Below, piece after piece: positions 1 to 64,000 of a stretch of DNA of 64,000 nucleotides. Source of the stretch: Taenia hydatigena (lineage: Eukaryota; Platyhelminthes; Cestoda; Cyclophyllidea; Taeniidae); NCBI GenBank assembly GCA_036345935.2, contig JADWOT020000607.1, positions 17,822 to 81,821 of the forward strand. The letters run 5' to 3'. How positions within the stretch are numbered: position 1 is the stretch's first letter; every line of letters starts with the position of its first letter. The position numbers and the translations under genes are program-made. Under the pieces are notes generated by a model. That model saw nothing but the letters and a program-made list of their open reading frames with translations. It was not told the origin of the DNA and ran no database searches.

Positions 1-690
1 GGATTACGCACTCGTGGTGATTGAGAAAGTTAAAGCAGAATTCCTATTTGCAGCAGTTGCAAGCCAGGAAGCAGGTACCCCACTTGTAGTAGTAACAGCA
101 GACAATATATACCGCTTCCATTTTGTGGCTGCAGAAGTCGAAGTAGATGATCCAGTCGCCGTTTGTACAGAATTTGAAGCGGTTCCGTCAGTTGTAATGC
201 AAGGACTAGAAGTAGGTTCCTTAGTAGTACGGATTCGAGAGTTAAAGAGATTTCCTATGTAGATGATCCGGTCGCCTTAACATGGCAATCGGAGGATGAG
301 GAGAGGATAGAATCGTCATGGTGAAAGAAAGAGTCAAGGCGAATTTTATAGTTGTGGCAACTATGGGAACTATTGAATATCTCTCTGTCTCGATGATCAC
401 AGAAGTCGTGACAGATGTCGTAGACGGGATGATTAGAGGTGTTGAAGCAGGTACCGCAATCGTGTTGATAGGAAGGAGACGAAGGAAATAGTCCCGTCAT
501 GGTGATACCAAGCGTCAAAGTAGATCCGCCTATTTCGATTGTGGAAACTGAAGTAGATTGCATACCATTGCACGTGGCGATTACAAAATTGGAGGTAGAC
601 CTTCAAATTGTTATCACTGCAGCAATAGAGATGGATCACCAAATGTTGGCGGCAGTCGAGTTCGAGAAAGCTTTTCCTTGCAAATGAAAA
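1..690 (-). pseudogene. Ser/Thr-rich stalk-like coding remnant, cut by window edge
   Basis: On the minus strand the stretch from about 230 down to 1 is open and very rich in Ser and Thr (runs such as TTKEPTSSP and GSSTSTSAAT). The part around 480-560 reads TSVSTIEIGGSTLTLG. A loose motif recurs near 520, 320 and 25, so this is a decayed tandem repeat. Frame shifts between segments prevent one continuous reading. The same composition occurs on the plus strand at 3419-3600, where it sits in phase after an FnIII exon, so it may be the stalk of an antigen-like membrane protein. The plus strand reads as a Val-rich shadow. No promoter or start is visible and the 3' end lies outside the window. Function is inferred only from composition and position. 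Confidence 0.35.
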
Positions 691-923
691 TTCGACCCAT
701 TTGGTTTATAATTACTTATTCGTAATCGAGTATACGGCTCTGAGGAAAATGTGGGCAAACAGTACATACTACAAACGGATTGCTGACTGGTATGATGATA
801 GTAAACGTGTGCGAGGCTATAAACTAAGCTGCAATCATGAAAAAATCAGCTACTGCTAATGAGCGTTCGCAGAAGTGATGAAGCTGACCAAGTGGCTCAG
901 ATGCCGCTGTCCGATCGTTGGGG

Positions 924-955
<32 letters not shown>

Positions 956-2090
956 CAACCCTGGCCCTCGAATTTCTCCGATAATTATGCTTATGTGGGA
1001 GCCATGGGGCATGGGTCACTCACCCACATACAAGGACTGGGTAGCATCACCATATTCCCTTATTAACGTTATAGTCGACGGAACCTGGCCCACTTACTTT
1101 AGAAAAATCACATTATGCTGCTTTGTAAACCATCTTGAAAAGCATTTTTGGTCACCCTTTTGTTATACAAGTGCATGATGTTTAAACCTCTTCGTAAACC
1201 TCACCGTTTGAGGCCAGACAATAATCATAGCAATTGGAGGCCTTGAATGAAAGACCAATGGGTGCGCTAGTAACTAACAACAAATGATTTACGCATGTGA
1301 CATTACAATGTTTCTCCATCGTGGTAATCGAATGTAAAAGCAGAGCTCACTATAGGAATGCACTATAGCAAACAGTTTGATTTCTTAAAGAGAAGTATGG
1401 AGAGTGAAGGAAGACCGAACACAATAGAAATACATTTAGCAACAGAGATCATAAGTTGATCGCTTTTAAAAGTTAACGTGAACTCTCGAACCAGTGGATG
1501 TCACGAAAGCACAAATGCACTTGTGAACTCAAACGCCTCCTGGGCATGCATGGCTGCCTAAAGAGCACTTTTTCATGTAGGCATGCGAAATTCAGAAAAG
1601 CTCTCTGCTTCTGTCTCACACAGGTGTCCATCTTTTGAGAAACTCTTCATACGTCCCAAAATGTTGCACTTAAGTTCTTTCCCTTTGAAGGCACTGGGGA
1701 TAGCCTTATGCCACCTCCATCGCCACGCATTTGTCAGCCTGTTAACACCAACGCATCTTGCGCATTTACTCTTACTCATATCAGAACCGGTATGACACAT
1801 GGAGGCTAAATCTACAGTTCAGCTCTGCAGGCAAACTTTAGATTGTAAAACACACAAGACTTATAGGTTAAATGCAAGTCTCATTGACTTACGGAAAAAC
1901 ACCTCTTGTCTACCCCACGCTCATGCGAACACCGACATTCGAGGCAACTTGCTACGAATGTATTGGGATTTTAGACATACCGATGCACGAACCTGAGGGC
2001 ATCAAAGAAGGTTTCAGTGTCTTCGAGGTTTGGAGATAAATTGGCGGTGTCGACTCCCAAAATCTATAGCAAACTGGGGTCAACCTCACT
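691..2090. other. No supported gene
   Basis: Apart from the CA microsatellite, I see only short overlapping reading frames with no splice signals or recognisable domains. A leader exon for the degenerate gene that follows might lie here, but I could not find a convincing ATG, hydrophobic core and GT donor. Confidence 0.5.
925..954. repeat. (CA)15 microsatellite
   Basis: Fifteen uninterrupted CA dinucleotides, directly visible. Likely length-polymorphic. Confidence 0.97.
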
Positions 2091-2101
2091 GCTAGAGAGA
2101 A

Positions 2102-3649
2102 CATAAAATGGATGAAGTAAAGCCAATAATGGAAGATACGGTCCAAGCGCTTGAACACGTGCTGCCTGACAGTTTCAGCAAGGTGGCAAATACTTTGGCA
2201 TTTGGAACAGCGGAAGCAGGTCTGTCTCCTCCTCACTCACCACCTGTCTACTCATATGCAATCAGCAGCAGTTAAATGCTCATTGTGCTCCAAGCCCAAC
2301 TTTTACATGTATAGCCATTTACATTCACGAATACTCTCACTCATTCTCATATTATAAGACTTACTGTTTCTCGAAATGTGGAACTTGAAGCAATTGACCC
2401 TTACACGGTGCAAATAACATGCAGGTTGAATGCCATATTGCAGCAAAGAGTTCATCTCTCCTCAAGAAATATCCATCACTTCACCGATTTAAAGCCGATG
2501 CAGACCATCGCCATCGCTATTGGTGTGCAAATTCAACTTGAGCCTTCCGTACAATTTGACTGTGCCGGAATTCGGAGTGCTTTCGTGAAAGCAACTATAC
2601 CACCACTAACTCGAGGTTAGTTCTTCCTCCACGATTACCCAAGGCTGTGCCATGACTTGAAAACAAATATGGTAAGGAGAATTATAAACCAGTTGGATTG
2701 TGGAGAATGTTAACTCATTATCACATCTACAGACCATAGACACAGGCGTGGATGCCCTAGTCTATGCACGGCTCATTTACTGTTAAAGACATGTGAACAC
2801 CGAGGTTTGAAGCAACTAACCATGAAGACATTTGCGATTTGCATATTTTGATTCACAACCCTGAGGATACCACTTGAGGGCCATCAGACTCATGAATTGT
2901 CTGGCATCTCGCGGCCAACCTTACTGCTACTGCACAGGATTACCGAATGGCGCGACTTCATACACCACTTGCTTATTTTGATCACAGTGTTGGAACCGAG
3001 ACCAATTGGTTTACACCAAAACAAACACATGTTTGTGCATGGTTTACAGTTCCATTGCCATAAAATTAACTGCAAGCAACCAATCAGATGCAGCTAATTT
3101 GGTTATTAAAAATATTCCATGAATCACGGTTAAAAATTAGGTTTTGCCTACGTATCAAGCGTTACCATATAAGAAAAACTTTGTTTAGAATGAAAATCAC
3201 AGAAAGAGCTGTCTTGCATACGTAATCACTCAGACGCCTGCAACCACCGAAACTAGAATTTCTATATCCCTATTTATAAAAAATGAAAAACCAGATGCGA
3301 CTCCTGTAGTCACTGGAACAAAGCGATTTGCCTCATCCCCTGCAATCATCACGACTGATGGCACTACTGTAACCTCTGTAATAACAAAAACGGGGGGTAT
3401 ATTTACCGTCTTTCTCAGTTGCCATGGTTATGGTATCCACACAGACTTTTCCAGCCGCCACGACAACTAGGAAAGCTGCTGCGAACCCTGCCACTTCCAC
3501 AGATAGGAAATCCACCTCAATTTTAGCATCTGCAACTGAAGGGTCCACAGCAGAAATTTGTAATTATCAAAACTGGAGGATCTCGTTTGGCATTCGCGTT
3601 CGTACTCACTTGCGTGATGGTCGTTATTGAGTGGAAATTTGCTCTATAA
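2102..3649 (+). pseudogene. Degenerate 45W-like antigen gene: FnIII exons plus Ser/Thr stalk and hydrophobic tail
   Basis: Three exon-like blocks. Block 1 (about 2102-2219) reads MEDTVQALEHVLPDS and ends at a GT donor (2220). Block 2 (about 2359-2615) is a clear FnIII domain: it opens NVELEAIDPYTVQITC, contains FTDLKPMQTIAIAIGV, and ends one base into a codon at a GTTAGT donor. It is collinear with exon 3 of the gene at 63360-63667 (NVKLQALDPFTVLLTW). Block 3 starts after a strong acceptor (TTTCTCAG, AG at 3417-3418), in the phase needed to follow block 2, and encodes a Ser/Thr-rich stalk. A hydrophobic tail reading LAFAFVLTCVMVVIE follows in the +1 frame, ending at 3649. Lesions: blocks 1 and 2 are out of phase, the tryptophan of the TW motif is Cys, and stalk and tail are in different frames. 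No leader exon found. Confidence 0.5.
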
Positions 3650-6099: not shown

Positions 6100-7060
6100 T
6101 TCTAGGCTATTGGAAAAACATGATCATGAATTTATCCCGAAACGCAAAGAAAGAATTATCCGCTTGGTTTCAATTCAATAAGTCGCCGAGTTGCTAGGTC
6201 CATGCTACTTCAATTTACTACGAACACTCACATCCAATGCTCTAAAATTGTACGATTTGTTTGCATTTCTCGTCACCATCAGAACGGTAGCTACAAATTA
6301 TTCTTCCATGTAGCTTGTTTAGACACCCACAAATTAATCTTTAAATAAGTGTTTCAGTGGGATGTGCAGCAACATAAAGCGTTTCAGTTTGTTCAGCGAT
6401 TGTAATCAACCGTTCTCGGCCGAATTACTGCCCACTGGCTTGCTTACACGGATGTTTGTCTGGCATCCTGACTATCCAGCCGGCTGAATGAATAACTGGC
6501 TCATCATCCGACACCTGCCTCGCCGGTCAAGCTGTTGCTGCATGGAAGCCTACCACTTACAAAAATTTGTTAGTTGAAGGCAGGAGAGAGAGAGTGCAGT
6601 TTTGTGTAGATCGCAGTAATTTATTTCCGCCTTTTAGATCTGCTACTCACTTAAAGATGGTAGCTGCATACACGGCTCAAACGCAAATGCAACGCGAAAT
6701 CAGGCAGTACAACTCAGAACTTGCAAGCGCGTAGGCTACTTATTACCTGTTTGTAAGAGGTAGTAATATAAAAGCATAAATATGATAAGATGTGGAAGAA
6801 TTTTACTTAGAATTGCCCAAAATTAGTGAAGGATGTGCGCAAAATCAAAAACGCTGTTATAATCTTAAAGAGACATACAAGTGAATCATGACTGCATGCG
6901 TCGTTGTCGTAATCGTAATCAGCAATGCACGTAGTCTCCCAGTTGCAGGTCTCCGACCATGACGTTCATTTGCCGCATCAGAGATAGTGAGGTTGCTCAT
7001 TGCCACCTCACGCGACGTTTTCGAAGCCAAAGTTGGGTTATATTGTGTCGTCTTTATGGG

Positions 7061-9680
7061 TTATCACCCGTTCCAGCTGACTTTTGTGAATACAAAAAGA
7101 ACAGTCACTTGTGTCAGTGATTGACATGCTTCTATTAAACGAGATAGACAAACTGTTATGCATGATCACAGTCGTCGCAGTTGCTAACGCCAGTCATTCT
7201 ACTCACCACTTCACATGGCATCCACGGACACTGTCAACATCGGGTCTTCATGAATTCAAATAGGATTGTCATGCTCAGTATCGAAACTTGTGATAAGTGC
7301 TTAGTAGAAGATTGATCCACCTGAAGCTGTATTGAAGCATGTGAGCTGCAAAATGGAAAAATGTGGCTCGCTCAGCAATGCTCATCAACAGGGGTATGTA
7401 AGTACCTGGTCTCACAGGGCGTAAGGCTCACTGCAGACATAGCTGGAATTGGCTTCCAACTTTGTTAAGAAGGGCAAGCAGTGGTTTCATTATACACATG
7501 TCAATTACACTGGAGTCTCGTCTGCCGAAGTTTAACATTACGGTTAATAATTGGCATCATGATAGGCTCAGTAGAACTAGAAGCTAAGCAGACGAATCCA
7601 ACTTCCCGTTGCGAAGTAAATTGATGCACACACATTCTGAATAACTCAGTTGATAATAAAATCAGACATGCCTTTTTCTGGTGGTATGGACTGCTCTAAA
7701 ATTCTCCACTGACCAAACACTTGTCAGCTCCAGTCGACAATGCGTCAAACGGTTGTGTTGAGCACAAGCACTGCCTGAAGTAAACATGTTTAGCGAGGCA
7801 TTTTTCGTTAACAGTTTGGTTTTGCACCAATAATTCACCGGTTTTAATGGTCTGTTTGACAATCCAACGGCTCATAGCTCCACAACTGCGAAGTTTGTCC
7901 GTCTTTAGTGAGAGTCATGTTTTCGTTCTACCATCTTGTCAATAATACGTTGTTGAAAATACGGCCAATGGTCTAATCACGACCTAAAACTGAAGAGCTG
8001 TGAAAGGGTGGTGATGAGTAAGGAAGGAAGGACTCTAATTATCCTTACTGAGGCTTTTCTATAGCAATCACCTATGGACCTTGATTGCAGCTTATTCACG
8101 TCTCATTTGCGGTAAATGCGACGTTAATTTCTTTCGAATGGAGACCTAAACTGCAAATCAGAAAATGGTTACTTATGTCTTGCCTCTATTGAAAGGTAAA
8201 TTAAATAGAATATTACCAGGATAATTTTGAACATTAAACTGACGAAGGCAAGGTACTTATTTAAGCGGTTTGCTGTTTAGACCAGATTCTTTCGAACTGG
8301 GTGTTTGATGGTTAACTGCGCAATGTTATGTCAACTTTATCTATTCTATTTCATCCGAAGCATTTGCTTTCAAAGTACTTGCAGTGTAATGCAACAACCT
8401 GGTCAAAATTTGCAGTGTTAGATGGGTGGATTGGCAAAGTCATGTAGCGCACTCAAATGAGAGGCAACTCGGCTCCTCTGTTTTGAGCTACTTTGCACAC
8501 ACATAACTTGATTTGCCACAGAAGAGGTCGAGTTAGACATTCCGCAGTGTATGCATTGTGACAGGCAATTTGTGGAGGAGATTCTACGATAAGTGCAGCT
8601 ATTGTGCGATGTCTAATTCCATGGAAGTGTGAACCTCTCCTGTGACACCCACCTACGCGTTCTCACTACCAATCGGCATTTCGGTATAAGCCCATTAGCT
8701 GAAGTATGTAACAATGGACAATTTGGAAAATTTTAACTTCACCCCATGTCTAGCATGTGACGGCGGCGTTTTCCTGCGTCAGATCGCTTGAGCATAGCAG
8801 TACGCTTAGTGATTATGCGGCGGATCACATACCAATGTCCCTCATTGTGACATCACCTCATCACTTCTCATGCCTTCAATCCTCAGTTGAGGCTTAGCTT
8901 TTAATGACTCCCTCTACAGCAGAGAATTTCTGGCATGTGAATGGTCCATTGACTTTATCTGCACCATCCTGCTCCCATTTTGCGCATTGGCTTGCGAAGC
9001 AGGCAATACATCATCTCACTCAAGTGAACTAAATAAAATCAGGCAATCAAATTGCGATGGCTAGCTCTCTCACACAGGTGGAGATGCTAGCATTTTGCTT
9101 ACTCCTACCATCCAAATTGGAGTTCCGCACAAAGTTCAGTCTGTATTTCGTTATTTTAATGCATCTCAATAGGTTATTCGGGGCACCACAGCAGGCTACT
9201 AACTGACTTCACAGCAAATCGGATCCACCTGTTCTTTAAGCGTCTTTGCCTGGACCTCTTAGATTATTTTGTTTACGGACGATAAGGAACGCCCAGACGA
9301 AATTGGTAATGCTGCCTACCCTCAGCTTTGAAGGAGAGTAAGCCTTATTGCACAGTTTATTTTCTGAATAATTCGGCTCATTTAGGTCCTCTGGTAAGAG
9401 TGTAGTATGACCGTAAAGTTAGGCGGAAATTGTGATAAACATGGGCAGTAATTTTGCTAAGAATCGTAAGCGGTGGTAATTGTAGCTCTTGCATTACATG
9501 GGAATCGGGAGGGGTTGAGACAGGCTCTCAAAGCCAGCTTAAACCACTCCTCGTTCACCGTGACGAGGTGAGTGAAAAAATCAAGCATTGCTATATAAAC
9601 TCACACATAAAACCGTATCTTGCTTGAAATTTCAAGAAATTAGCAATTTTTGGACCATCAATTTAAAGAGGGTGTAAGCA
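7061..9680 (+). repeat. Perfect inverted repeat, left arm (2,620 bp)
   Basis: Every stretch compared (about ten blocks, plus both ends) is the exact reverse complement of 13729-16348. Paired coordinates always sum to 23409, so there are no net gaps. Spacer is 4,048 bp. Other A copies in the window are more than 10% diverged, so this pair is either very recent, homogenised by gene conversion, or an assembly artefact. Confidence 0.9.
7325..7468 (+). pseudogene. Cysteine-rich open fragment in A block
   Basis: A 47-codon frame opens directly after a TGA and ends TAA. It contains CIEACELQNGKMWLAQQC then SSTGVCKYL, a tight Cys pattern. The inverted copy at 46393-46596 (-) reads CGGCIRECELQNGKMRL and continues upstream to a Met. 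The 30.3-kb copy has a stop in the CIEAC position. The region 7337-7472 is identical to 30354-30489. It could be an exon remnant of a secreted Cys-rich protein, but I do not recognise the family. A chance frame held in repeats is the alternative. Confidence 0.25.
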
Positions 9681-13728: not shown

Positions 13729-16348
13729 TGCTTACACCCTCTTTAAATTGATGGTCCAAAAATTGCTAATTTCTTGAAATTTCAAGCAAGATACGGTTTT
13801 ATGTGTGAGTTTATATAGCAATGCTTGATTTTTTCACTCACCTCGTCACGGTGAACGAGGAGTGGTTTAAGCTGGCTTTGAGAGCCTGTCTCAACCCCTC
13901 CCGATTCCCATGTAATGCAAGAGCTACAATTACCACCGCTTACGATTCTTAGCAAAATTACTGCCCATGTTTATCACAATTTCCGCCTAACTTTACGGTC
14001 ATACTACACTCTTACCAGAGGACCTAAATGAGCCGAATTATTCAGAAAATAAACTGTGCAATAAGGCTTACTCTCCTTCAAAGCTGAGGGTAGGCAGCAT
14101 TACCAATTTCGTCTGGGCGTTCCTTATCGTCCGTAAACAAAATAATCTAAGAGGTCCAGGCAAAGACGCTTAAAGAACAGGTGGATCCGATTTGCTGTGA
14201 AGTCAGTTAGTAGCCTGCTGTGGTGCCCCGAATAACCTATTGAGATGCATTAAAATAACGAAATACAGACTGAACTTTGTGCGGAACTCCAATTTGGATG
14301 GTAGGAGTAAGCAAAATGCTAGCATCTCCACCTGTGTGAGAGAGCTAGCCATCGCAATTTGATTGCCTGATTTTATTTAGTTCACTTGAGTGAGATGATG
14401 TATTGCCTGCTTCGCAAGCCAATGCGCAAAATGGGAGCAGGATGGTGCAGATAAAGTCAATGGACCATTCACATGCCAGAAATTCTCTGCTGTAGAGGGA
14501 GTCATTAAAAGCTAAGCCTCAACTGAGGATTGAAGGCATGAGAAGTGATGAGGTGATGTCACAATGAGGGACATTGGTATGTGATCCGCCGCATAATCAC
14601 TAAGCGTACTGCTATGCTCAAGCGATCTGACGCAGGAAAACGCCGCCGTCACATGCTAGACATGGGGTGAAGTTAAAATTTTCCAAATTGTCCATTGTTA
14701 CATACTTCAGCTAATGGGCTTATACCGAAATGCCGATTGGTAGTGAGAACGCGTAGGTGGGTGTCACAGGAGAGGTTCACACTTCCATGGAATTAGACAT
14801 CGCACAATAGCTGCACTTATCGTAGAATCTCCTCCACAAATTGCCTGTCACAATGCATACACTGCGGAATGTCTAACTCGACCTCTTCTGTGGCAAATCA
14901 AGTTATGTGTGTGCAAAGTAGCTCAAAACAGAGGAGCCGAGTTGCCTCTCATTTGAGTGCGCTACATGACTTTGCCAATCCACCCATCTAACACTGCAAA
15001 TTTTGACCAGGTTGTTGCATTACACTGCAAGTACTTTGAAAGCAAATGCTTCGGATGAAATAGAATAGATAAAGTTGACATAACATTGCGCAGTTAACCA
15101 TCAAACACCCAGTTCGAAAGAATCTGGTCTAAACAGCAAACCGCTTAAATAAGTACCTTGCCTTCGTCAGTTTAATGTTCAAAATTATCCTGGTAATATT
15201 CTATTTAATTTACCTTTCAATAGAGGCAAGACATAAGTAACCATTTTCTGATTTGCAGTTTAGGTCTCCATTCGAAAGAAATTAACGTCGCATTTACCGC
15301 AAATGAGACGTGAATAAGCTGCAATCAAGGTCCATAGGTGATTGCTATAGAAAAGCCTCAGTAAGGATAATTAGAGTCCTTCCTTCCTTACTCATCACCA
15401 CCCTTTCACAGCTCTTCAGTTTTAGGTCGTGATTAGACCATTGGCCGTATTTTCAACAACGTATTATTGACAAGATGGTAGAACGAAAACATGACTCTCA
15501 CTAAAGACGGACAAACTTCGCAGTTGTGGAGCTATGAGCCGTTGGATTGTCAAACAGACCATTAAAACCGGTGAATTATTGGTGCAAAACCAAACTGTTA
15601 ACGAAAAATGCCTCGCTAAACATGTTTACTTCAGGCAGTGCTTGTGCTCAACACAACCGTTTGACGCATTGTCGACTGGAGCTGACAAGTGTTTGGTCAG
15701 TGGAGAATTTTAGAGCAGTCCATACCACCAGAAAAAGGCATGTCTGATTTTATTATCAACTGAGTTATTCAGAATGTGTGTGCATCAATTTACTTCGCAA
15801 CGGGAAGTTGGATTCGTCTGCTTAGCTTCTAGTTCTACTGAGCCTATCATGATGCCAATTATTAACCGTAATGTTAAACTTCGGCAGACGAGACTCCAGT
15901 GTAATTGACATGTGTATAATGAAACCACTGCTTGCCCTTCTTAACAAAGTTGGAAGCCAATTCCAGCTATGTCTGCAGTGAGCCTTACGCCCTGTGAGAC
16001 CAGGTACTTACATACCCCTGTTGATGAGCATTGCTGAGCGAGCCACATTTTTCCATTTTGCAGCTCACATGCTTCAATACAGCTTCAGGTGGATCAATCT
16101 TCTACTAAGCACTTATCACAAGTTTCGATACTGAGCATGACAATCCTATTTGAATTCATGAAGACCCGATGTTGACAGTGTCCGTGGATGCCATGTGAAG
16201 TGGTGAGTAGAATGACTGGCGTTAGCAACTGCGACGACTGTGATCATGCATAACAGTTTGTCTATCTCGTTTAATAGAAGCATGTCAATCACTGACACAA
16301 GTGACTGTTCTTTTTGTATTCACAAAAGTCAGCTGGAACGGGTGATAA
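13729..16348 (-). repeat. Perfect inverted repeat, right arm (A block, copy 2)
   Basis: Exact reverse complement of 7061-9680 wherever compared. Unlike the left arm, the flanking sequence changes abruptly at both ends: B-block tail on the left (the C block present at 42.8-44.4 and 54.8-56.5 kb is missing) and D block on the right. This fits a copy of an internal piece of A copy 1 placed at a B/D junction, or a conversion tract whose edges coincide with the block edges. Confidence 0.9.
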
Positions 16349-17189
16349 TCCACTGGCGAATGGAGTCCAGTCCCAGTTGCAATACAAATATGACTTACTG
16401 CATCGCTTCAAGTGTTACCCTGACGAGGACGAAAAGCTCGACGAATCGGGTTGGTCTTTGAATAAAATGCTTTCTAATCGAGAGCTGTTCTGAGCATGTC
16501 AGCAGCTTTTGCAATGTTTGGCCAGTCGCTGCGCAATCTTGCTTCAAATGTTTCCATTTTGCACGGTTTGGGCATCGATTTTGAGAAGTTATACTGATTA
16601 GTGTAAATACCTCACCTGAATTCATAGTGCAAATCGGAGGGGCTGATTTCTTTATGCGACGCATTCAATTGGGATGCAACTCGGCTCCTTCGAAATAATA
16701 ATGTCCACGCTCACGAGACTTCACCCGGATTGGTCAATGCAGCTGCTCCTTCAACCGGATCTATTATAGTTGCAGGAATGGCAACTATGAGAATTTTTGA
16801 AGAAACAACGAAACATCTAGCTACAAGGCTCACCTCTGCTTATTTGGTGTGGGCAACAGGTAAATGAATAAACTAGATTAATTTTATTCGGAAACCACAC
16901 TAGATCACACTATGAAGCTTCTGCAGTGAATAAGGTCGCCAGAGTAATTTGCAATGGTGCGTGGTTAATCACAAGGCCAAGACGCTCAGCTATTTTGCAA
17001 TTTAAAACTAAAAGCCTGGCAATGGTTTACTTTAAGATGTATGCATTTCCATGCATGCATTTTGTAAGATCCAGTTACAGTATGTCTTGCTTCACCTTGC
17101 ATCAAAGCATTGGACAAAATTGTAGTTTGTGTCTTCGCCCGTATTTTAATCTGTTCCGGTAAAGTACGGAAACACACCTCCTTACGCCA

Positions 17190-37646: not shown

Positions 37647-37685
37647 CTTCGGCGCGAGAAGGTGTAGCTGTCACAACTCAGGGCG

Positions 37686-43501: not shown

Positions 43502-43696
43502 ATGCACATGGATGCGGTGATCGTTAGTGTGATGAAACAAAGCAATAGTGTGGCTTTATCTTGCCAGTCGCAGGTCCTATCGAAAGGACCGATGGAACCT
43601 GGTGCAGTGCCATGTGACGCGATGTTTGCCTCATCCGGTTATCTTTGCAGTACTAGATTAATTTGGCACAGTCGGACAGAAGTTTATTGGGTTTAA
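43502..43696 (+). pseudogene. Possible second FnIII-like exon remnant
   Basis: Open for 64 codons, containing SVMKQSNSVALSCQSQ, which resembles an FnIII A-B strand, then GPMEPGAVPCDAMFASS. The copy at about 55570-55800 has a stop in the same stretch. Its opposite strand is also open in both copies, so coding direction is not certain. Confidence 0.25.
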
Positions 43697-48484: not shown

Positions 48485-50300
48485 GTGAACACAATATCCA
48501 AAAATCCTCTCAAATTTAAACGCTTCGACAGCGGAGGTAGCTGGCAGGATAACTAAACCTTTAGCTCAAAAGTAGATTAGCGTCAAAAGTGTCCATCTTT
48601 CTTACTCGTATTTGAGAATCAAAGGAAAGAAGTGAAGTTTGTCTGCATCTGCGGTTATTTTTCTCGGAACATGACTTTATCATCGAGCGAATGGAACGCT
48701 TTTGCAGGGGTGTCGCTTGTCAATTTGAATTCGCACGACTCATTATTTGGTTTGCTTAGCCTAATCATCTATTCGGAGCACAGCAAATTGTTGATAGAGG
48801 AGAATGGTGTAGAATACAATCTGTTATGGAATGTACAGCATTAAAGAAAGGCGGTGATCAGGTCTACCACGAGGATGGGTAATTGGGAAAGTAAGATACA
48901 GCTGTTCGGTAGAGATTGGCGTGGAGGAATAGGGACGAACAAGTAAGTGTGTGGGAAAGTCAGGTTACACTCACGCACCATCATCGAGTCCTGAATTATG
49001 GATGCTGCGCGGTGAATCTCAGATCCCCATTTCTGATCATGTTTGGTAGCATAGGAATCTATGGTGCCAACGTTCCCATAAGGAGTCGCTTCATTCCACC
49101 TTTAATAAGCCGCCATTGTCGTGGCAGCATCGTAAATAACTCTAAGTCTTAACACCCTGCACAATCCTCCCGATGGGCAGGCATCACATGGGGATGTGTG
49201 CTGATTGTGTTAGTGATTACACAGGGTCAAATCAACCAAATGCTCTGCCTCCGCCACCTCTCATTGGCCACTCTGCTGCTACGCAGCCACGCACACGCTC
49301 CTTCATCCCCGTCACTCAAGTAAGGCGGTTTTGTGGCAATTCTATCTGCCAACCAATCTAACAAAGCAGACGAAATCGCTTTAAATTCGTTGTCAAGCCC
49401 GCTTGCTAACTTTGCCATTCCACTCCACCTTTAATGCCCAACAAGGTGCGTGACTGACTAACTACAGTCACCACCTTTTCTCGGAACATGCATCCACTCG
49501 TAGAGGGCACCCCCAATTCCTTCCTTTGCGGCTATTTGGGTGCCAAACACGTTGAAGTTCATTGATTCAATGAAGCAGTGGTGCATCTCGTGTTTTAGGC
49601 AACTAAACAGATGCTACTCAGATAATTTTATCGTTTCAGCTCTACTTTAGGCAGAATGTTCGACTTGTATAGAGCAAATAATCATTTTGATGTGATAAAT
49701 CAATCTTAGTTCTCCATGTACCTTCATTAAACGAGCACACGTCTAATTTAGCTAAAGAAATAAATGTGGAACAACTTGGAAGCGTCAAACCTCGTTGTCA
49801 TTGAAAGGGTGAGCTTGAGCACAAGTACAAGCTCTATCGCGATTGTGCCACCTCGGATAATATCTACTGAAATGTCGAACAGATAGTCGATGTCATCGAG
49901 CCTTGAATCCGCCCATGTTGGTCAATACAACTTCCTACATCACGACGATAAGGAACGCAGAAACGCCATTGAAGGTGGCGCATTAAATGTGAAATGGTGT
50001 CGAACATGCAAGTACCTCTTGATTAATGCAATGGCAATTAACTATTCAAGCACAATGTATGTTTGGTATAGACTTACGAGGATCGTACGAATTCAACATC
50101 CATCATCACGTCCTTCAATTCGCATTTGGATGCAGCCACTATTTTATCCCCATGCTCGGGAGCAGCATTCAGTGCACTCTTTCAAAAGAGATAAATGCTG
50201 AAACTTTCTAGTCATGTCGATTCATTTTAGCTGTTGTTAACCTCTATTTATGCGACTTGTTAGTGGAAAGCGGGTTATGATTATGAATTGTTGATGAAGG
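48485..50300 (-). repeat. B block, copy 3 (inverted)
   Basis: Reverse complement of 38.25-39.9 kb, near-identical in parts: the 79-codon frames at 48916-49152 (+) and 39272-39508 (-) differ at only one residue. Adjacent to the promoter of the plus-strand EG95-like copy, mirroring the left arm. Confidence 0.75.
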
Positions 50301-50839
50301 GACTGCTTAAACCAAATGCATTACCTTCTATTTCCATTATACCATCGTCAAATTAAACACACAAGTAAACGCAGTCACTTTATTTTCGTGACCACTTAGT
50401 AAAGTTAATTCAAGTAGTTCCACACAACCGCAGATTTGCATTGAGCAAATTTTATCAAGGATGGTAGGTAAACCAGTCTGCGAAGGTAAGTAATCTTGTA
50501 AAATTGTTTAAGTGTCTCGCCTCAGGCTACGAAATTGCCTAAGCGAACGCAAATTACACGAAAGGAATATTCCCCATTGACAACACTCCAAACCTGCAGC
50601 ATCCCAGCAGTCTACGTATTGGGGTCACCATGGATTGGCGGGAGTTTTACAGCATGAATTGACCTCCTACGTTGGCGTAACTTTCGCGCCTGTGCAGATT
50701 GACCATAGCGCGCTTTGGAGATGGATACTCATCCACCCACACGAAGCATCACCTCATATTGTCCAATGTGTGGGTGCAGAAGCCACCTCGTGTGCCAAGG
50801 TCACATGTCTCATAGGCTGATGTGCTTGTGGCACCTACT

Positions 50840-50847
50840 TATAAATA
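50840..50847 (+). promoter_or_regulatory. TATA box of the plus-strand EG95-like copy
   Basis: TATAAATA 40 bp upstream of the ATG, placed exactly as in the inverted paralogue. Confidence 0.65.
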
Positions 50848-50886
50848 CGTCCTGAGTTGTGCCAACTCCACCTCCTCAAGCTGAAG

Positions 50887-52068
50887 ATGTCCACTCAATG
50901 CAGTATCCTCCTGTTCTCCATCACTCTTCTAGCAATTGTCAACAGAGCAGTGGACGGTAAGATGCTTTTTACTACTTGACTCTAATCAGGCTCCACGTAT
51001 TCACATGGGATGTTTCATTCCATTCGCCTGTATTCAGCAGATTTGGAGTATCCCATGTTCCATCTTATTTACAGACCTCTGTGTGTCCACATCACACAAG
51101 GTGTTTGTGAATGCAATGACAGATGGTAGCAGTATTGTAATCTGCCAGATATTCATGCCAAGCACTAACCACTGCCAAGCTAGCAAGTGAGAACATGATG
51201 CGCGATATCATATCGGAGGGTGACATGTCTCTTCACATGAGGAGGGAATAAAGCCACAGGTATACCTGTATTGCATTCCATTTCATTCTTTAGCGTATTG
51301 TGCAAAAGTGTGTGGGTAGGTGGACTGCAAATACCAATCATTGGGCCGAGTCGCATGAGACATCCGCCTTTACTTGAGCCTCCCATTGCAACACACACTC
51401 ATGCCGGAAGCTAACACTCACTGACGCTTGTCCGCACTGGAATGTTCACGTTAATTGCCTCACGTAAAAGGCAAATGAGCTAAATTTTACCTGCTCACTA
51501 CTACCATTACCGTCAGTTTGGTATCTGAAAATGTTTTGCAGTCTCCTTCCTCATTGCACTAAAACGCCCGAAACAACTGTACCAAAAACAGCGTTTCTTG
51601 TTTTATGGATGCGGAAGTGATACCGTTTTTCCGGCTTCCAAATAACTTCACGTGGAGTCACGTAGGCGCCCACGAAACCACCTTACGTTGGGATGTCCAG
51701 ATTTGGGTGAACACTTTGCCGACCAAATTAAAATTACTGCGTCACCTGAAGGCATCTCAATCAAGAATGAGACCGTAGATTATTCACGTGGAGAAGTAAC
51801 TCCGATCGGGTTGGAAGCCAATTGGACATACGAGGTGACTGTTGAGGCAATTAAGGATGGCAGAAGTGTTAAGCATTACTTCGATGAAGTCAAAACACTT
51901 CCCAGTGTTGAGGCAGAATTCGAGCAAACAATGCACACCTCCACACCGAGGAATTATGTGTCTACTTACATAGGAGTGGAAGAAAGTGTTGCCACAACCA
52001 GTGGGTCTGCCTCAACCTCCGCAATCTCTTGGCCCGCATTAGTCTACATGGCTGTGGTGCTTGCTTGA
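50887..52068 (+). pseudogene. EG95/TSOL18-like FnIII antigen, frame-shifted copy with intact tail
   Basis: Leader exon 50887-50956 (MSTQCSILLFSITLLAIVNR, phase 1, GTAAGA donor), 661-bp intron, FnIII exon from 51618. One A is missing at about 51699 compared with the inverted paralogue, so the frame leaves the domain just after LRWDVQ and stops near 51779. Downstream of the deletion the original frame is open to TGA 52066-52068 and still encodes NWTYEVTVEAIKDG, TTSGSASTSAIS and the hydrophobic end WPALVYMAVVLA, which resembles the family's membrane/GPI-type tail. It therefore has the tail the other copy lacks, but a broken domain. Promoter, leader and splice sites are intact, so it may be transcribed. 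A single-base sequencing or assembly error would make it a functional gene. Confidence 0.7.
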
Positions 52069-52509
52069 GCTCTATCGTAAGTCAGTGAGGATTAGCATCA
52101 GTTGCAGCTACATACAAACTCACGCCTGATAACTTGCTCTCGTCAAGTCTTGCTTTTCCCCATAGGTTCTTTCAATGCAGAAAATGCATCGGTACCATTC
52201 GATCGTGCTTGTTTGCCATCACCGTGTCATTCCATATTGCTGTTAATGGAAAATCTGAACCATGATGCGCTTACTTGTCCCTTCATTCTATGAGTCTTCC
52301 TCTTGCATTGGTTAAATGCAGATCACAATGGGAGGTGAAGCAGGGCGAAACCCTTATGCTTCACGTTGTCACATCTTTAATTGTTCTACCTTCCTCCTGC
52401 AAATGTGGTCTAAAATCAAATTGAAGGATCTGGCCTGCTGAATCGACAAGTGTCGTATCTGATCTAAATGCATGATCGTGGGGCATGGTGGGTGAATCTT
52501 AAAGTTCAC
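52069..52509. other. 3' flank of the plus-strand EG95-like copy
   Basis: About 85% similar to the inverted 36.0-36.48 kb. No polyadenylation signal close to the stop was found. No other gene seen. Confidence 0.4.
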
Positions 52510-54830
52510 TTACACTAGTGGAATTCGTGGATGGGTCCATCCAGACACACTTGTCATGCCCACGTCTAAGGCCCATTAAAAGCAGAGAAATTTGCCGCAC
52601 CAACATGATATCAGCTGTATGTGCTTGCTCTAGACGCACTTCATTCGAGTATCACGCTACTATACTTTCAATGTGTCACCTTCAGCAGCACGAGCATATT
52701 CGTCATATATGTGTGCATTTCAATCCCTAACAACCAAAACCATCTGTTTAACATTGCAGTCGATATTATCCATGGTATCACAATTCACGGTAGGGCTTGT
52801 ACTTGTATCCTTTCAATCTCAACTTGGCGCGATATTTCCGAATTGTTGTGCGAATTCTAATCATGCTCCTCTACTTTTGTTTCTGCACACTTATTTCCTA
52901 GCAAAATTAGGCTTGTGCCTGATTGCTGAGAAAGATTTGATGCCCTCTATAATTACTCAACTCCTACTAGTTTAAATATCCGGCTAAACTAGTCATCGTT
53001 TTAGGCATTAAAATAGTTGAAGAATGGCAAGACTGGCAAGCGGGTTTGATGAAGGACCTTCATTACATTGATTAGCAGAGAGAAATACCACAACACCACC
53101 TTGCTGGAGTTACGGAGACGAAGAAACGTGTGCGTGCGTAGCAGCAGAGTGGTTAGTGGGAGGTGGCATAGACAGAGCACTTGGTTGACTCTGACCCTAT
53201 GCTGAGTATTAACACACAACACACATCTCGATGTGATGCCAACCAATCGGGAGAGTTGTGCAAGGGTGCCAGACACCAGAGTTTACTGCGATGCTCTTTG
53301 CAGGAACGCGGACACTGCACAATTTTACCATGCCGTCAAGCATGGCTAGAATGTAAGACTTGAGATTCATCAGGTGGCATCCATACTTCTGAACTAGATG
53401 ATAGTGTATGAGATTAACATGACTTTCGCGCATACCTAGTTGTTGGCTCGTATTCCTTCACCCCAACCCTAATCAAACAGTTGCATTTTACCTTCCTCAC
53501 TAAATCATTGTCTCCTGCGTACCTTAGAAATGAGGACCTAAAGTGCCATTTGCTCGCGTCTCTGTTTTTATCCCTGGGACGTTATTTTACCATCCAGTAA
53601 CAAGGACGCATTAAAAAGTGTAACTAATCAACTCGAATTTCGCACCACCCTATTATGGAAAGCATAGTTTCGGGAGCTCCTACAATAGCAATAATAATAA
53701 TCTTTTGGTGCAGAATTCAGGCTGTTGCGAAACGCGTATCATGGCGATAAGTTGGTGACCTGGTCTTCCCTGGGTCAGTGGGATGGTGACGAAGATAAAA
53801 TTAAAAAGTGATAACTGAAGGTTGAACATATGAGAAAGACAAATTGAACTTATGGAACATTGTCTAGCCTTGATCAACGGATGCTACTTGTTGAGTCCCA
53901 AGTACTAAAGTCTGCTACCCTAAAACGCCTTACTCTATTTTACGTTAAAGAAGCATCCAATAAGGCAGCAACATTTTAGAAAACTGTGGAGCTTGACATC
54001 CAGCACAATCTCGCCAGATTGGTCAGCATCAAATAATTGTTTGTGCTGAGTGTGTTAGTGATCAATGCGGGGTCAAGGCCAGCGAAATGCGTGAGGCTGT
54101 GAAGCTTTCTCTCAATCGCCACCTCTTATTGGCTTCTCTGCTGCCATGCGGTCACCCACGCACGCACGCACTCAAGATTCACAGACGTTTTTTAGTGCCG
54201 CTAACTGTCAACCAATCCGGCAAAAGAGGCGAAATTACTTTTCATTCTTCGTCAAAATCGATCAGCTCCAATTGCAATGCTTACTATGATGCTTGTCGGA
54301 GCAAATAATTCTGCTTCGCTTTCATCGACGTCTTGTTGAATGTGGATTCTATTGCCGTCCATTTACTTCTAAACAGGCTTGTGATTGCATTTTAGTGGAG
54401 CGATTTGTCCATGTCGTTTTGTTTGAAGCCACAAAGCAGTGTCGCTTAGCGAAGTGAATCATCTCTGATCCACTGCAGATTAGATGCTCAACTAGTTAGT
54501 TAACCGCCTTAGAGTCGAACAATTCCGAAGTGTTATGCATAGCATTTGACTTGCAGAATTATTAATCATGTAAATCCATTTATTTGAAGTACGTAGATGC
54601 GCATTTACCGTCACTATATGAGTAAGCACACTACGGTAAATTGAAGGAGCATGTTCCAAGTTCATACGAGTTTGAAAATACTGTACTCAGTCTGAAACGA
54701 ACGAATGAGCTGATTACAACTACAGACTCTGTTGCGCATGTTGTCACAATGAAAAACACTTGCTGATGTGTCGTTGAGGCCTGAAGTCTATCCACCACTT
54801 ATCACCATCCATGCTGATCAGTACACATTT
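52510..54830 (+). repeat. B block, copy 4
   Basis: Inverted counterpart of 32.75-35.3 kb and partly direct counterpart of 9.7-13.7 kb, with internal rearrangement: a B-like piece at 53.0-53.9 kb lies in the opposite order. No intact gene recognised. Confidence 0.65.
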
Positions 54831-56520
54831 CATGCCTACTTCCAGTCGTTCTAGATGATGCCTCGGTCTACATAGAATCGCGCCTATCAACTAGCTTTTA
54901 AGTCAAATCAATTAATGCCGAATCGTGGTTAACGATAATGCGTCCAAAGCAGAAGCGTGCAACGCTTTAGGAAATGACAGTAAGTGTGGCTAAAATAAGT
55001 CTCATCAGTTCAACAGGACAGTTACATCTTTCACATAATCTGCTAGAACCCTTTTTGTATTTCTTTTGCTAACAGAGTGCCATTGTGCAATGTCGAACCC
55101 ACGCATCATGCGTCACCTCACCTGTCGTGGTAAAGGTGATAACAGTCTTATAAGCTGTAAAGTATGACTGGAGCACCTGTAGCCATCTTCACCACCGAAA
55201 GGCGTTGATCACGAAATTCGATATCATAATTGCTTGCACATCAGAACGCATTTTGGTCCATTTGGCACTAGTAATGCATAAAATTGTAGGGATAGTTGGT
55301 AATAAGAGTCCGCAATATCTTATACGCTCACAATGGCGAAATTTGCAGATTGAAGTGTCACCGTTGACAAATTGAAAGGCGGCGCACAATACTCATTGAC
55401 TGCGCCTGCACATGCCAATGGCACGTCTAGAATAATCTACACCAGATTCATTGTGTTACTGGCCGTAGATAAGCCAGCAAGTACGACCATGATGCCTAGC
55501 TCCATATCTAGTGATGAAATGTGCAGACTGAAGTAAATGTCAGAATCACACCTTAATGTCTTTCCTCCTACTTCTCTTGGGATTAAGCACATGGCTGCGG
55601 TGGTCGTTAGTGTGATGAAATAAAGCAGTAGTGCGGCTTTATCTTGCCATTCCCAGTCCCTATCGAAGGGACCGATGGAACTTGGTGCAGTGCAACGTGA
55701 CGCGATGTTTGCCTCATCCGGTTCTGTTTGCAGTACCAAATTAATTTTGCACAGTCAGACAGAATTTTATTGGGTTTGGGTTGCAACATGATTCTAAACT
55801 AACCGCGGCTTGAGGTTTTGCCTTACTGGATGGTTTGTGCCAATAAATGAAAATTGAATTAGCAAGAACTTGCTTGCAACTTACGATTTCCATTGAGGCA
55901 TTTGCGCTTCATACCAGCTCTTCCGAACAATTCGTGCTATGCATTGGCAAGGCAGAGGTATCCAGGAAGGCACCTCGAACTCATATTGTAATGCAGGCGT
56001 CACAACGAAAGGTACACCTACAGGAATGGCACGAATGCATGTGATCTTACACTGTCTCCTACGTTGAACATTCTACACAGCATTCTGCACAGCAAAGTCG
56101 TGCCTCTGAGACCTTTCCAATGGACTGCTGAGTGTTACGAAAAGGATAAAATTTGGAGCACTTTATGTGCGATTGCGAAATAGTGGGGAGGAGCGGAGCA
56201 CATTGGATGTAATCCTATGCAGGAGGCGCACACTCTCAAATGTGTGTCACAGTGAAGTGGCTAAGAAGTGAGTCAATTGGCACAAAACACAAACAGCACG
56301 CATTGTGACCCGTGCTCCTTCAAAAGTTTGAATGAATGTGTTAGTGTCACATCTTTCCAATCCTAAGCATCGTTCAGCGGCGGGCAAATCAAAAATCCGT
56401 TGCCATCAAAATTCCACAGAATCTGCATCATTGCTACAGGCTTCGAAAATAGTCACCAATATTTGAGAAACACCTATTCTTTACATGCTTCCGCCCCATA
56501 GGACTTCGAATTCACGCGTC
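54831..56520 (+). repeat. C block, copy 2
   Basis: Collinear with 42760-44440. Contains the second copy of the broken FnIII exon (55081-55445): KLKGGAQYSLT and PAHANGTSRIIYT are preserved, but the Trp codon is TGA and the splice donor is lost (CAG followed by ATTC). The frame then continues into FIVLLAVDKPASTTMMPSS, a Ser/Thr-rich hydrophobic stretch resembling a tail. Confidence 0.65.
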
Positions 56521-57960
56521 TCAAGGCGTTCGCTTGCACCCTCTTTTTAAACTGACGGTCCAAATTGATATTTAATTGAAATTTCAAGCAAGATACAGTT
56601 TTACATGTGAATTTATATAGCAATGCTTGATTTTTAGCTCACCTCGTCACAGTGAATGAGGTGTGGTTTAAACTGATTTTGAAAGCCTGTCTCAACCTCT
56701 CCCGATTCCCATGTAATGCAAGAGCTACAATCACCACCGCTTACGATCCTTAGCAAAATTAATGTCTAAGTTTATCACAATTTCCACCTAACTTTACAGT
56801 CATGCTACACTCCTGTGGGATGTCTTACCAGAGGACCTAAATGAGCCAAATTGTTCAGAAAATAAACTGTGCAGTAAGGCTTCCTCTTCTCCAAAGCTGG
56901 GGTTAGGCAGCATTGCCAACCTCGTCCAAACGTTTCTTAAAATTTGTCAACAAAATAATCTAGGAAGTCCAGGCAAAGTTGCTTAAACAACAGGTGTATC
57001 TGATTTGCTATGCAGTCAGTTGTTAGCTTGCTGTGGTGCCTCGAATAACCCATTAAGATGCAATAAAATAACGAAATACAGACTGAACTTTGCGCGGAAC
57101 TCTAATTCGGATGGTGGAAGTAAGCAAAATGCTAGCATTTCCACCTGTGTGAGAGAGCTAGCCATCATGATTTGATTGCCTGATTTCATTTATTTCACTT
57201 GAGTGAGATGATGCATTGCCTGCTTCGCAAGCCAGTGCGCAAAATGAAAGCAGGAAGGTGTAGATAAAGTCAATGGACCATTCACATGCTAGAAATCCTC
57301 TGTTATAGAGATGGTCATTAAAAGCTAAGCCTCAACTGTGGATTGAAGGCATGAGAAGTGATGAGGTGATGTCGCAATGAGGGCCATTGGCATGCGATCC
57401 GCCGCATAACCACTAAGCGTGCTGCTATGCTCAAACGATCTGACACAGGAAAACACCGCCATCACATGCCAGAGATGGGGTGAAGTTAAGATTTTCCAAA
57501 TTATTCATTGCTACATACTTCAGCTAAAGGGCTTATGCAGAAATGCCGATTGGAAGTGAGAACGCACAGGTGGGTGTCACAGGAGAGGTTCACACTTCCA
57601 TGGAATTAGACATCGCACAATAGCTGCACTTATCGTAGAATCTCCTCCACAAATTGCCTGTCACGATGCATACAGTGCAGAATGACTAACTCGACCTCTT
57701 CTGTAGCAAATCAAGTTATGTGTGTGCAAAGTAGCTCAAAACAGAGGAGCTGAGTTGCCTCTCATTTGAGTGCACTACATGACTTTGCCACTCCACCCGT
57801 CTTACACTGCAAATTTTGACCGGTTTTTTGCATTACACTGCAAGTACTTTATGACAAATGCTTTTGACAAAATAAAGTAGATAAAGTTGACACGAGGTTG
57901 CGCAGCTAACCATCAAACCTTGTCGAAATTCGTCTAAGTACAATGAAAAAGCACCCAAAT
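56521..57960 (-). repeat. A block, copy 5 (partial, inverted)
   Basis: Matches the 3' half of A copy 1 inverted (up to about position 8230 there), then joins D at about 58.0 kb. Shows that A-to-D is a natural junction in the block order. Confidence 0.7.
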
Positions 57961-61343: not shown

Positions 61344-61350
61344 GTTTCTG

Positions 61351-62479: not shown

Positions 62480-62487
62480 TATATAAG
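62480..62487 (+). promoter_or_regulatory. TATA box of the 45W-like gene
   Basis: TATATAAG 51 bp upstream of the ATG, matching the short leader seen in the EG95-like pair (TATA to ATG about 40 bp). Confidence 0.65.
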
Positions 62488-62530
62488 CGACAAGAGTGGG
62501 GTTGTAGTAGCAAATTGGTACTGCAATTCT

Positions 62531-63667
62531 ATGACCTCCCTTCGACTTTGCTTGATTCTATTGGCCACCGCCTGCTTACATGGTGACTCCGCACTGACAA
62601 CTTGTAAGATTCCGTCTTCTAATGCTCTACTCACATCCCACACACGTAGATGCCCCCACAAATGCGATTGTTGGTTAACTTAGTGAACTTGACGTGATTA
62701 GCTGCCATTCCTTGACTTTTAGTAGCTTCACGCTGAGGGCATGGTAGAATTCATACTGATGCATGAAATGCCCCTCAGATTATTATCGTCCTCAACCAGT
62801 TAGTTATAAGCCCACAGTGAGTTACATGCGTGGAACGCAGGATACACCAACTTCACCTTCCTCTCCCTCTCTCCCTCCACACGCCTTCTCCCAACTCTCC
62901 TTACAGGCATGAATCGACCATCATTCGAGGCAACATACTACAGTGATGATCACGAATTGGAACTGAAGATGCACGAACCCACTGGTGTGGTAGGAGAATT
63001 CGGTGGCTATGAGATCCTAACAAAGAGCGGTCCTGACGTGAAGGAAATCAAATGGCACTCAGAAGCGGTGCTCGAGGAAGCGCAGCGAAAATACGTAATG
63101 GAGAACCTCAAGCCATTAGTGTCATATGCTGTTACGGTACGTGGATGCGTATTGCCTCTTAAAACCAGCGCGATGGCTGATCCATTGGAATTCACAGTGC
63201 TACCATCAGGTTTGTCATTTGGCGCGCTACTCCTTTGCAATTGGTAGCAGCGTTTTATGCATTCACCACCTTGCTTGGCATTCCACATTCACCTCCAGCC
63301 TCAAAGGCATGCATGTGCATTTTTCGCAATGACAAACGATTCCATTTTGCATTGCGTAGAATGGAGTGTTCCACGGAATGTGAAACTGCAAGCACTTGAC
63401 CCATTCACGGTGCTTTTGACATGGCAACCGCCAGCCGAACCCTACGGTTGTGTCTCTAGCTACATCATTGAATGGAGCCGTAATAATACGTGGCAGAAGA
63501 GCGTTCGGCCCTCCTCCAGTCGTTCCTACGTCTTCAGAAAATTGGAACCCGAGGAGAACATTTCTGCCTCTGTGCGTGCACGCAATCGACGAAAGGCACC
63601 GGTAAAGTTTGTATACGTTGGTTCCCGCAGCAAAATCCTGACAGCACGCACTCCTCTTTTCCGCTGA
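62531..63667 (+). CDS. 45W/TSOL45-like secreted antigen with two FnIII domains, three exons
   Basis: Exons 62531-62603, 62907-63209 and 63360-63667 join in frame (73+303+308=684 nt) to give 227 residues. Exon 1 is a signal peptide (MTSLRLCLILLATACLHGDS). Both introns are phase 1. Donors are GTAAGA and GTTTGT; acceptors are CTCCTTACAG and TTGCGTAG. Domain 1, about residues 30-125, shows ELELKMHEP, GYEILTKSG and ENLKPLVSYAVTVRG. Domain 2, about 128-220, shows NVKLQALDPFTVLLTWQPP, SSYIIEWSRN and FRKLEPEENISASVRARN. Two-FnIII architecture with phase-1 introns is that of the 45W/TSOL45 branch of the oncosphere antigens; the sequence is diverged. Unlike typical members, no hydrophobic C-terminal tail is encoded before TGA, so either a fourth exon is missed or the protein is secreted. 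TATA box and AATAAA bracket it. It has no lesion and no duplicate in the window. Confidence 0.78.
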
Positions 63668-63744
63668 GGTCAGTCTACTCTTCGTCTCTCCTCAAACATT
63701 ATGCTGTGACTTCAAATTGACTGAGCTAATTCAGACTTGGAGTT

Positions 63745-63769
63745 GAACAGAACAGAACAGAATAGAACA
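63745..63769. repeat. (GAACA)5 short tandem repeat
   Basis: Five GAACA-type units, one with a substitution (GAATA), in the 3' untranslated region of the 45W-like gene. Confidence 0.9.
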
Positions 63770-63777
63770 ATTGTGGC

Positions 63778-63783
63778 AATAAA
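63778..63783 (+). terminator. Polyadenylation signal AATAAA
   Basis: AATAAA 111 bp after the stop codon of the 45W-like gene; no other gene ends here. Confidence 0.6.
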
Positions 63784-63879
63784 ATCGGAGCGACAAACTG
63801 TCCTTCGTTCATGTTAAGTATAAGTATCAACTCGACTTTAGCCAGTCGAACAAATGCAGCCAGTAAGGCAGGCAAAGAA

Positions 63880-64000
63880 CCACGTGATACACAGCCTACA
63901 GCTAAGTGACGCGATTGCTTTCCAAGTTATCATAACAAAACTTGCTTTTGTAGGATAGATGGTGAAGAGTGAGCTATTGGGCCAACACAGTCTGCCTTCT
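63880..64000 (+). repeat. E-block end segment, continuing off the window
   Basis: Reads closely like 23750-23852 (TAGGATAGATGGTGAAGAGT shared, then GCCAACACAGTCTGCCT). Indicates that the duplicated domain continues beyond the right edge. Confidence 0.6.

What the first reader, a model, noticed from the sequence alone, without database searches (positions are those of the whole stretch)
1..64000. The window is a birth-and-death cluster of EG95/45W-type FnIII antigen genes
Besides three clear gene models I find at least ten decayed pieces with the same building plan: leader exon ending in phase 1, FnIII exon(s), Ser/Thr or hydrophobic tail. They sit inside duplicated blocks A-E that recur in both orientations. 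This suggests the antigen family grows by segmental duplication with rapid decay, leaving few live copies. Family identity rests on the TVEA-K, ETP-like and TSGSA-TSAI motifs and on intron phase.
Basis: partly seen in the sequence, partly recalled or inferred. Interest (0 to 1): 0.75.

Follow-up and report, generated by a model that had tools for sequence, protein, structure and literature searches.

The report
Decaying tapeworm antigen-gene cluster with gene conversion
This stretch of what looks like tapeworm DNA holds one apparently working and several broken copies of a vaccine-type antigen gene, spread by DNA duplication and partly overwritten by each other; this is an ordinary way for antigen families to evolve, seen here in physical detail.

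Summary
The window looks taeniid (tapeworm). The finding is right at its core and overstated in detail. Three loci share a TATA box 47-51 bp before ATG, a hydrophobic leader exon and a phase-1 donor. G3 (62531-63667) looks intact: both domain exons have homologues at 62-73% identity and the second passes Pfam FnIII. G1 (37646-36501, -) is 60% identical to a T. solium '45 kDa antigen' but stops before the hydrophobic tail. G2 (50887-52068) is its inverted duplicate with a frameshift. I find eight relic pieces, two borderline, not ten or more; four of the eight, and G3, lie outside the duplicated blocks. 47,524 of 64,000 bases are duplicated, in both orientations. Three other tracts behave alike, two with clear third-copy controls. 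Inverted arms 7057-9680/13729-16352 differ at 1 of 2624 sites. Best reading: birth-and-death by duplication plus gene conversion between copies, including inverted ones. A new member of a known kind, of modest interest. Relation to EG95, TSOL16 and TSOL18 was not tested.

The parts
62480..62530 (+). G3 core promoter with TATA box 51 bp before ATG
62531..62603 (+). G3 leader exon (hydrophobic, 24 codons + 1 base), phase-1 donor at 62604
62907..63209 (+). G3 exon 2, first FnIII-like domain (Pfam fn3 15.1 bits, below cut-off 25; homologues P0003 73%, P0004 67%)
63360..63667 (+). G3 exon 3, second FnIII domain (Pfam fn3 39.8 bits), stop at 63665-63667; homologue P0002 62%
37577..37646 (-). G1 leader exon, TATA box 47 bp before ATG, phase-1 donor
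36501..36916 (-). G1 FnIII + Ser/Thr exon; open until a stop (36503-36501) just before the hydrophobic tail; the acceptor at 36918-36917 is my reading of the sequence
37280..37435 (-). relic of a G1-type last exon inside G1 intron 1
50887..50956 (+). G2 leader exon, TATA box at -47, phase-1 donor at 50957
51563..52068 (+). G2 FnIII + Ser/Thr + hydrophobic tail exon region, broken by a frameshift near 51700
51093..51254 (+). relic exon inside G2 intron 1, duplicate of the G1 one
1916..2226 (+). decayed G3-type exon 2
2363..2622 (+). decayed G3-type exon 3
2789..2932 (+). second decayed exon-2-type piece
42096..42169 (+). G3-like leader-exon relic with GTAAG donor, no TATA (borderline)
43374..43425 (+). 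relic resembling the intronic relic of G1/G2
55457..55522 (+). duplicate of the 43.4 kb relic (borderline alone)
36868..37467 (.). conversion-like tract G1/G2 (1 of 600 sites differ); no third copy to compare
39202..39686 (.). conversion-like tract with the 49 kb copy (1 of 484 sites differ); third copies 6.2-6.6%
20299..20508 (.). conversion-like tract with the 22-23 kb copy (0 of 210 sites differ); third copy 11.4%
7336..7472 (.). conversion-like tract with the 30 kb copy (0 of 137 sites differ); third copy 10.9%
7057..9680 (+). left arm of a 2624-bp inverted repeat, 99.96% identical
13729..16352 (-). right arm of that inverted repeat
28328..41762 (+). fullest copy of the duplicated unit (contains G1); unit limits are my reading of the match list
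42470..57918 (-). inverted copies of the unit (contain G2 and the 43/55 kb relics)

Best explanation
The window is part of a cluster of 45W-type secreted FnIII antigen genes in a taeniid tapeworm. A unit of roughly 13 kb was copied in direct and inverted orientation, and a separate G3-type lineage left relics at 1.9-2.9 kb. Most copies have decayed: one locus (G3) looks intact and G1 is at best a tail-less secreted form. Copies have overwritten short tracts of each other by ectopic gene conversion, also between inverted copies, so the G1/G2 gene bodies stay similar while their flanks diverge. Shown here: homology, the breaks, the duplications and the low-divergence tracts. Inferred: that the tracts are gene conversion, and that G3 is transcribed in the oncosphere, secreted and a protective antigen.
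For: Named homologue for G1. Pfam fn3 in G3 exon 3. Homologues of both G3 domain exons. TATA + leader + phase-1 donor only at G1, G2 and G3: 4 rows here against a mean of 0.5 and a maximum of 3 in 40 shuffles. 37 printed self-matches of 300 bp or more, both orientations. G1/G2 divergence 1/600 in the tract against 263/2230 outside. Third-copy controls: 20299-20508 0/210 in the pair but 24/210 to the third copy; 7336-7472 0/137 but 15/137.
Against: Pfam fn3 fails its cut-off for G1, G2 and G3 exon 2. Profile comparison of the G1 type with the G3 exon-3 type, two rows each, finds no relation (probability 0.13%), and neither leader finds the other by DNA, so that the two types are one family rests on gene plan, not on sequence. 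G3's stop lies directly before a donor-like GGTCAGT, so G3 too could have lost a tail; P0002 ending at the same column speaks against that. Structure models are poor (mean pLDDT 33.1 and 45.9). Of 16 repeat pairs tested besides the inverted arms, 10 have a longest identical run that 33 to 1067 of 2000 random placements reach. The tracts were chosen as the longest runs, after looking. At 39202-39686 the third copies are also less divergent than their surroundings (6.2-6.6% against 13-15%), so constraint is not excluded there. The G1/G2 tract has no third copy. No RNA evidence.
Confidence: 0.7

Rival explanations
1. Pure birth-and-death without conversion: selection alone explains the low divergence of the gene bodies.
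For: G1/G2 exon 1 differs at 1 of 69 sites; gene body 36400-37870 4.1% against 15.0% outside.
Against: The quietest part is intron with a dead exon relic: 0 of 156 sites in the relic and 1 of 344 in the intron after it, against 4.9% (21 of 431) in exon 2; the first 141 sites of the intron are at 5.0%. dN 0.054 and dS 0.083 in exon 2, from 26 changes, do not suggest strong constraint. Third-copy controls.
Confidence: 0.1
2. The duplicated blocks are dispersed genome-wide repeats and the antigen genes are passengers, not the reason for the cluster.
For: Blocks also occur where my scans found no gene piece (6.1-13.3 kb, 16.8-19 kb); all four Eg95 genes are reported in repeat-rich regions (PMC8894454, section 10).
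Against: Of ten large ORFs from the rest of the window none reaches a Pfam cut-off, transposon protein or other; but non-coding repeats would not show there and the genome itself could not be searched.
Confidence: 0.35
3. The 99.96% inverted arms and perhaps other tracts are assembly or polishing artefacts.
For: The arms end where their homology to each other ends on both sides.
Against: Older mirrored pieces at 12.7% and 17.2% divergence lie outside the arms, as expected for an old inverted duplication whose core was homogenised; four other tracts are short and lie inside diverged neighbours.
Confidence: 0.2

Closest known systems
TSOL45 / 45W oncosphere antigen family of Taenia
   Same: Secretory signal plus one or two FnIII domains; TSOL45-1A has two FnIII domains, TSOL45-1B lacks exon II (PMC3383989, passages read). 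G3 has two domains, G1/G2 one with an exon relic in the intron. P0001 carries the name 45 kDa antigen.
   Different: G1 and G3 lack a hydrophobic tail; G3's homologues found here are unnamed; the intronic relic of G1/G2 resembles their own last exon, not G3's exon 2.
EG95 gene family of Echinococcus
   Same: Signal-peptide exon, FnIII exon, TATA box, a pseudogene member, location in repeat-rich regions; gene conversion already suggested (PMC2671473 passages; PMC8894454 passages and section 10).
   Different: EG95 has one FnIII domain, most of it in exon 2 of three; no EG95 sequence was compared here.
tm16/tm18 oncosphere genes of Taenia multiceps
   Same: Leader exon followed by an FnIII exon (PMC2706984, passages read).
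   Different: Sequences not compared here.
TSOL16B and Tsol15 oncosphere protein expansions in Taenia hydatigena
   Same: Duplicated oncosphere surface antigens in a Taenia genome (PMC8384839, passages read).
   Different: Other subfamilies by name; no physical map or conversion analysis in the passages I saw.

Membership tests
Taeniid oncosphere FnIII antigens (45W/TSOL45, EG95) | Hydrophobic leader exon ending in a phase-1 donor | tested here: met
   G1, G2, G3; no signal-peptide program was run
Taeniid oncosphere FnIII antigens (45W/TSOL45, EG95) | FnIII domain by curated profile | tested here: inconclusive
   Passes for G3 exon 3 (39.8 bits, cut-off 25) and P0002 (45.6); below cut-off for G3 exon 2 (15.1), P0003 (18.3), P0004 (23.1) and P0001 (20.2); no fn3 match for G1, G2 or the relics at 1.87-2.62 kb
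Taeniid oncosphere FnIII antigens (45W/TSOL45, EG95) | Sequence homology to a named member | tested here: inconclusive
   Met for G1/G2 (P0001, 60%); G3's three homologues are unnamed
Taeniid oncosphere FnIII antigens (45W/TSOL45, EG95) | Hydrophobic/GPI C-terminal tail | tested here: not met
   G1 stops before it and G3 ends without it; only broken G2 keeps it. P0002 ends at the same alignment column as G3. I do not know that every member has the tail
45W/TSOL45-1A | Two FnIII domains in consecutive phase-1 exons | tested here: inconclusive
   G3 exons 62907-63209 and 63360-63667, both introns phase 1; second domain passes Pfam, first is sub-threshold
Taeniid oncosphere FnIII antigens (45W/TSOL45, EG95) | Expression in the oncosphere | not testable with these tools
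   No RNA data
EG95 / TSOL16 / TSOL18 in the narrow sense | Close sequence relation to those proteins | not tested

The most novel reading that the evidence does not exclude
Broken antigen copies in inverted orientation act as a donor archive: conversion tracts move stretches of exon and intron between copies and so reshape the live antigen. Such archives are known from other parasites (recalled, not searched); in taeniid oncosphere antigens I saw no mapped case in the one listing I asked for on conversion (10 of 28 papers shown), though eg95 introns were called suggestive of conversion before (PMC2671473).
Probability: 0.12. Interest if true: 0.65.

Novelty: new member of a known kind. Interest (0 to 1): 0.38.

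Why it matters
Antigens of this kind are used in tapeworm vaccines (PMC3383989, PMC8894454, passages). Knowing which copies are live, and that copies can overwrite each other, bears on how stable such a target is between strains. PMC8894454 says in its abstract that, before its own map, almost nothing was known of the genomic organisation of the EG95 family. The inverted arms and tracts make conversion in this family testable with long reads.

Tried and rejected
Structure prediction of the G3 exon 2 reading frame alone (pLDDT 33.1) and of the G1 frame with P0001 (45.9): too poor to use. A Foldseek search of the latter had 1080 matches with E up to 10, none with E below 0.001 (best 0.017, an EphA2 complex with an FN3 domain); the 50 rows shown are mostly FN3 domains, monobodies and cytokine receptors. 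I count it as a weak hint only.

PDB sequence search of G1: one match at E 0.079, a coat protein, taken as chance. Of G3 exon 3: 14 chains, best neogenin at E 2.2e-06, which says FnIII and nothing more.

Profile comparison of G1 type with G3 exon 3: no match. Rfam: none. Pfam on ten large ORFs elsewhere: none at its cut-off. A possible exon-2 start at 41.03-41.17 kb scored E 0.26, against 1.0 for the best of five shuffles; too weak to keep. A further weak row at 55551-55610 was reached by 9 of 100 shuffles and dropped. The first two runs with the G3 exon-2 protein used a wrong frame and were replaced; the exon-1 line slipped a frame and was replaced.

Considered and rejected: that G1 has lost its exon-2 acceptor. 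An AG at 36918-36917 would serve in phase 1, so I do not call it broken. Passages of PMC2919375 on the antigen B family and PMC9128525 on T. crassiceps were read and not used.
Full report
Origin and named genes. The window has 41-49% GC in 2-kb steps. The only named protein match is a T. solium protein, '45 kDa antigen' (P0001), so I take the window as taeniid; the species is not known to me. G1, on the minus strand, has a leader exon 37646-37577 and an FnIII/Ser-Thr exon ending at a stop at 36503-36501. tblastn shows P0001's tail matched beyond that stop. G2 (50887-52068, plus) keeps the tail but changes frame near 51700. G3 (62531-63667, plus) has three exons, both introns in phase 1, and no break that I can see.

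How firm is each. G3 exon 3 passes the Pfam fn3 cut-off (39.8 against 25 bits) and has homologue P0002 at 62%, which passes too (45.6 bits). G3 exon 2 does not pass (15.1 bits), nor do its homologues P0003 (18.3) and P0004 (23.1). P0002 and P0003 are both listed on a contig of 1483 bp, so they may be two exons of one gene; I could not read that contig. Their likeness runs a few residues into the introns at the splice sites. P0002 ends at the same alignment column as G3, which suggests that the tail-less end is native; its DNA was not seen. Against that, G3's stop lies directly before a donor-like GGTCAGT, so loss of a tail exon is possible. P0001 has a sub-threshold fn3 match (20.2 bits), G1 and G2 none.

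Promoters. A scan for a hydrophobic leader with a phase-1 GTAA/GTGA donor gave 28 rows in the window against 28.5 on average in 40 shuffles, so the leader alone says nothing. With a TATA box 25-70 bp upstream there are 4 rows, from the three loci G1, G2 and G3, against a mean of 0.5 and a maximum of 3. The TATA sits at -47, -47 and -51.

Relics. Seven DNA queries or profiles were scanned on the window and on 100 Markov shuffles. Eight non-gene pieces stand out, six with 0 of 100 shuffles reaching their score. The pieces at 55457-55522 (2 of 100) and 42096-42169 (0 of 100 with G3 alone, 2 of 100 with three leaders) are borderline. The relic in the first intron of G1 and G2 resembles part of their own last exon, so it is probably a dead duplicate of that exon. 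TSOL45-1B is published as a form lacking exon II (PMC3383989, passages); the likeness is only that both end with one domain.

Duplication. BLAST of the window on itself gave 57 matches, of which the 37 of 300 bp or more were printed; 36 of these are 71.5-90.4% identical and one 99.96%. Read in order (my reading of that list), 28.3-41.8 kb is the fullest unit; it recurs inverted at 57.9-48.5 kb and in part at 48.5-42.5 kb, and at 6.1-13.3 kb without the part that corresponds to 32.6-38.2 kb, where the gene lies. 47,524 of 64,000 bases are in repeats of 150 bp or more. G3, the three relics at 1.9-2.9 kb and the leader relic at 42.1 kb are in unduplicated stretches.

Conversion. I tested 17 of the 37 printed pairs for runs of identity against 2000 random placements of the same differences. 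Leaving aside the inverted arms (7 of 2000, with a single difference to place), 6 of 16 pairs had a run reached by 4 or fewer of 2000; the other 10 were reached by 33 to 1067. The test assumes equal site rates and ignores gaps, and the tracts below were picked as the longest runs. The strongest is G1/G2: 1 of 600 sites at 36868-37467 against 263 of 2230 outside. By region: upstream 12.1%, promoter and 5' end 13.9% (10 of 72), exon 1 1.4%, first 141 sites of the intron 5.0%, relic in the intron 0 of 156, intron after it 1 of 344, exon 2 4.9%, tail 7 of 36, downstream 16.8%. Selection on the protein would spare the exon, not the intron. Exon 2 shows 8 synonymous and 18 non-synonymous changes, dN 0.054, dS 0.083: too few to tell from neutral. 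With a third copy as control: 20299-20508 0 of 210 in the pair and 24 of 210 to the third; 7336-7472 0 of 137 and 15 of 137; 39202-39686 1 of 484 and 30 of 452 or 29 of 468, the last less clear because the third copies are below their own surroundings. G1/G2 has no third copy.

Inverted arms. 7057-9680 and 13729-16352 differ at one of 2624 sites. Outside the arms lie older mirrored pieces: 5219-5407 with 16356-16535 (31 of 180 sites differ) and 4728-5185 with 16771-17228 (58 of 458). The left side holds 1.65 kb (5408-7056) with no mirrored match on the right. This fits an old inverted duplication whose core was homogenised lately; a fresh copy or an assembly error is not excluded.

Known background. 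Four Eg95 genes in E. granulosus G1, in repeat-rich regions, with highest transcription in activated oncospheres relative to protoscoleces (PMC8894454, section 10). A pseudogene, and intron gaps called suggestive of gene conversion, were reported for eg95 (PMC2671473, passages). T. hydatigena shows expanded oncosphere proteins TSOL16B and Tsol15 (PMC8384839, passages). Four literature searches (20 of 306, 15 of 16, 4 of 4 and 10 of 28 papers listed) showed no title or abstract start describing a mapped 45W-type cluster with conversion. The library lacks most subscription papers; the 1995 paper on the T. ovis antigen gene family, seen in the reference list of PMC2706984, I did not look up.

Verdict. 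Live copies in the window: one likely (G3), one possible in altered form (G1).

Noticed in passing
7057-9680 and 13729-16352: 2624-bp inverted repeat with one difference, while the other 36 printed self-matches of 300 bp or more are 71.5-90.4% identical; older mirrored pieces outside it.
   Followed up: partly
4-705 (-) and 3189-3470 (+): Open stretches rich in Ser/Thr; no Pfam family at its cut-off and no DNA similarity to each other or elsewhere in the window.
   Followed up: partly
63922-64000 and 23768-23846: A 79-bp match at 93.7% that runs into the window's end, so another duplicated block may continue beyond it.
   Followed up: no
43354-43638 (-) and 55437-55754 (-): Related open frames of about 100 codons on the strand opposite to the 43/55 kb relics, open in both copies.
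   Followed up: no
32743-33710 (-) and 41257-41762 (+): Within the 28-42 kb unit a repeat occurs in inverted orientation on both sides of the gene-bearing part.
   Followed up: no
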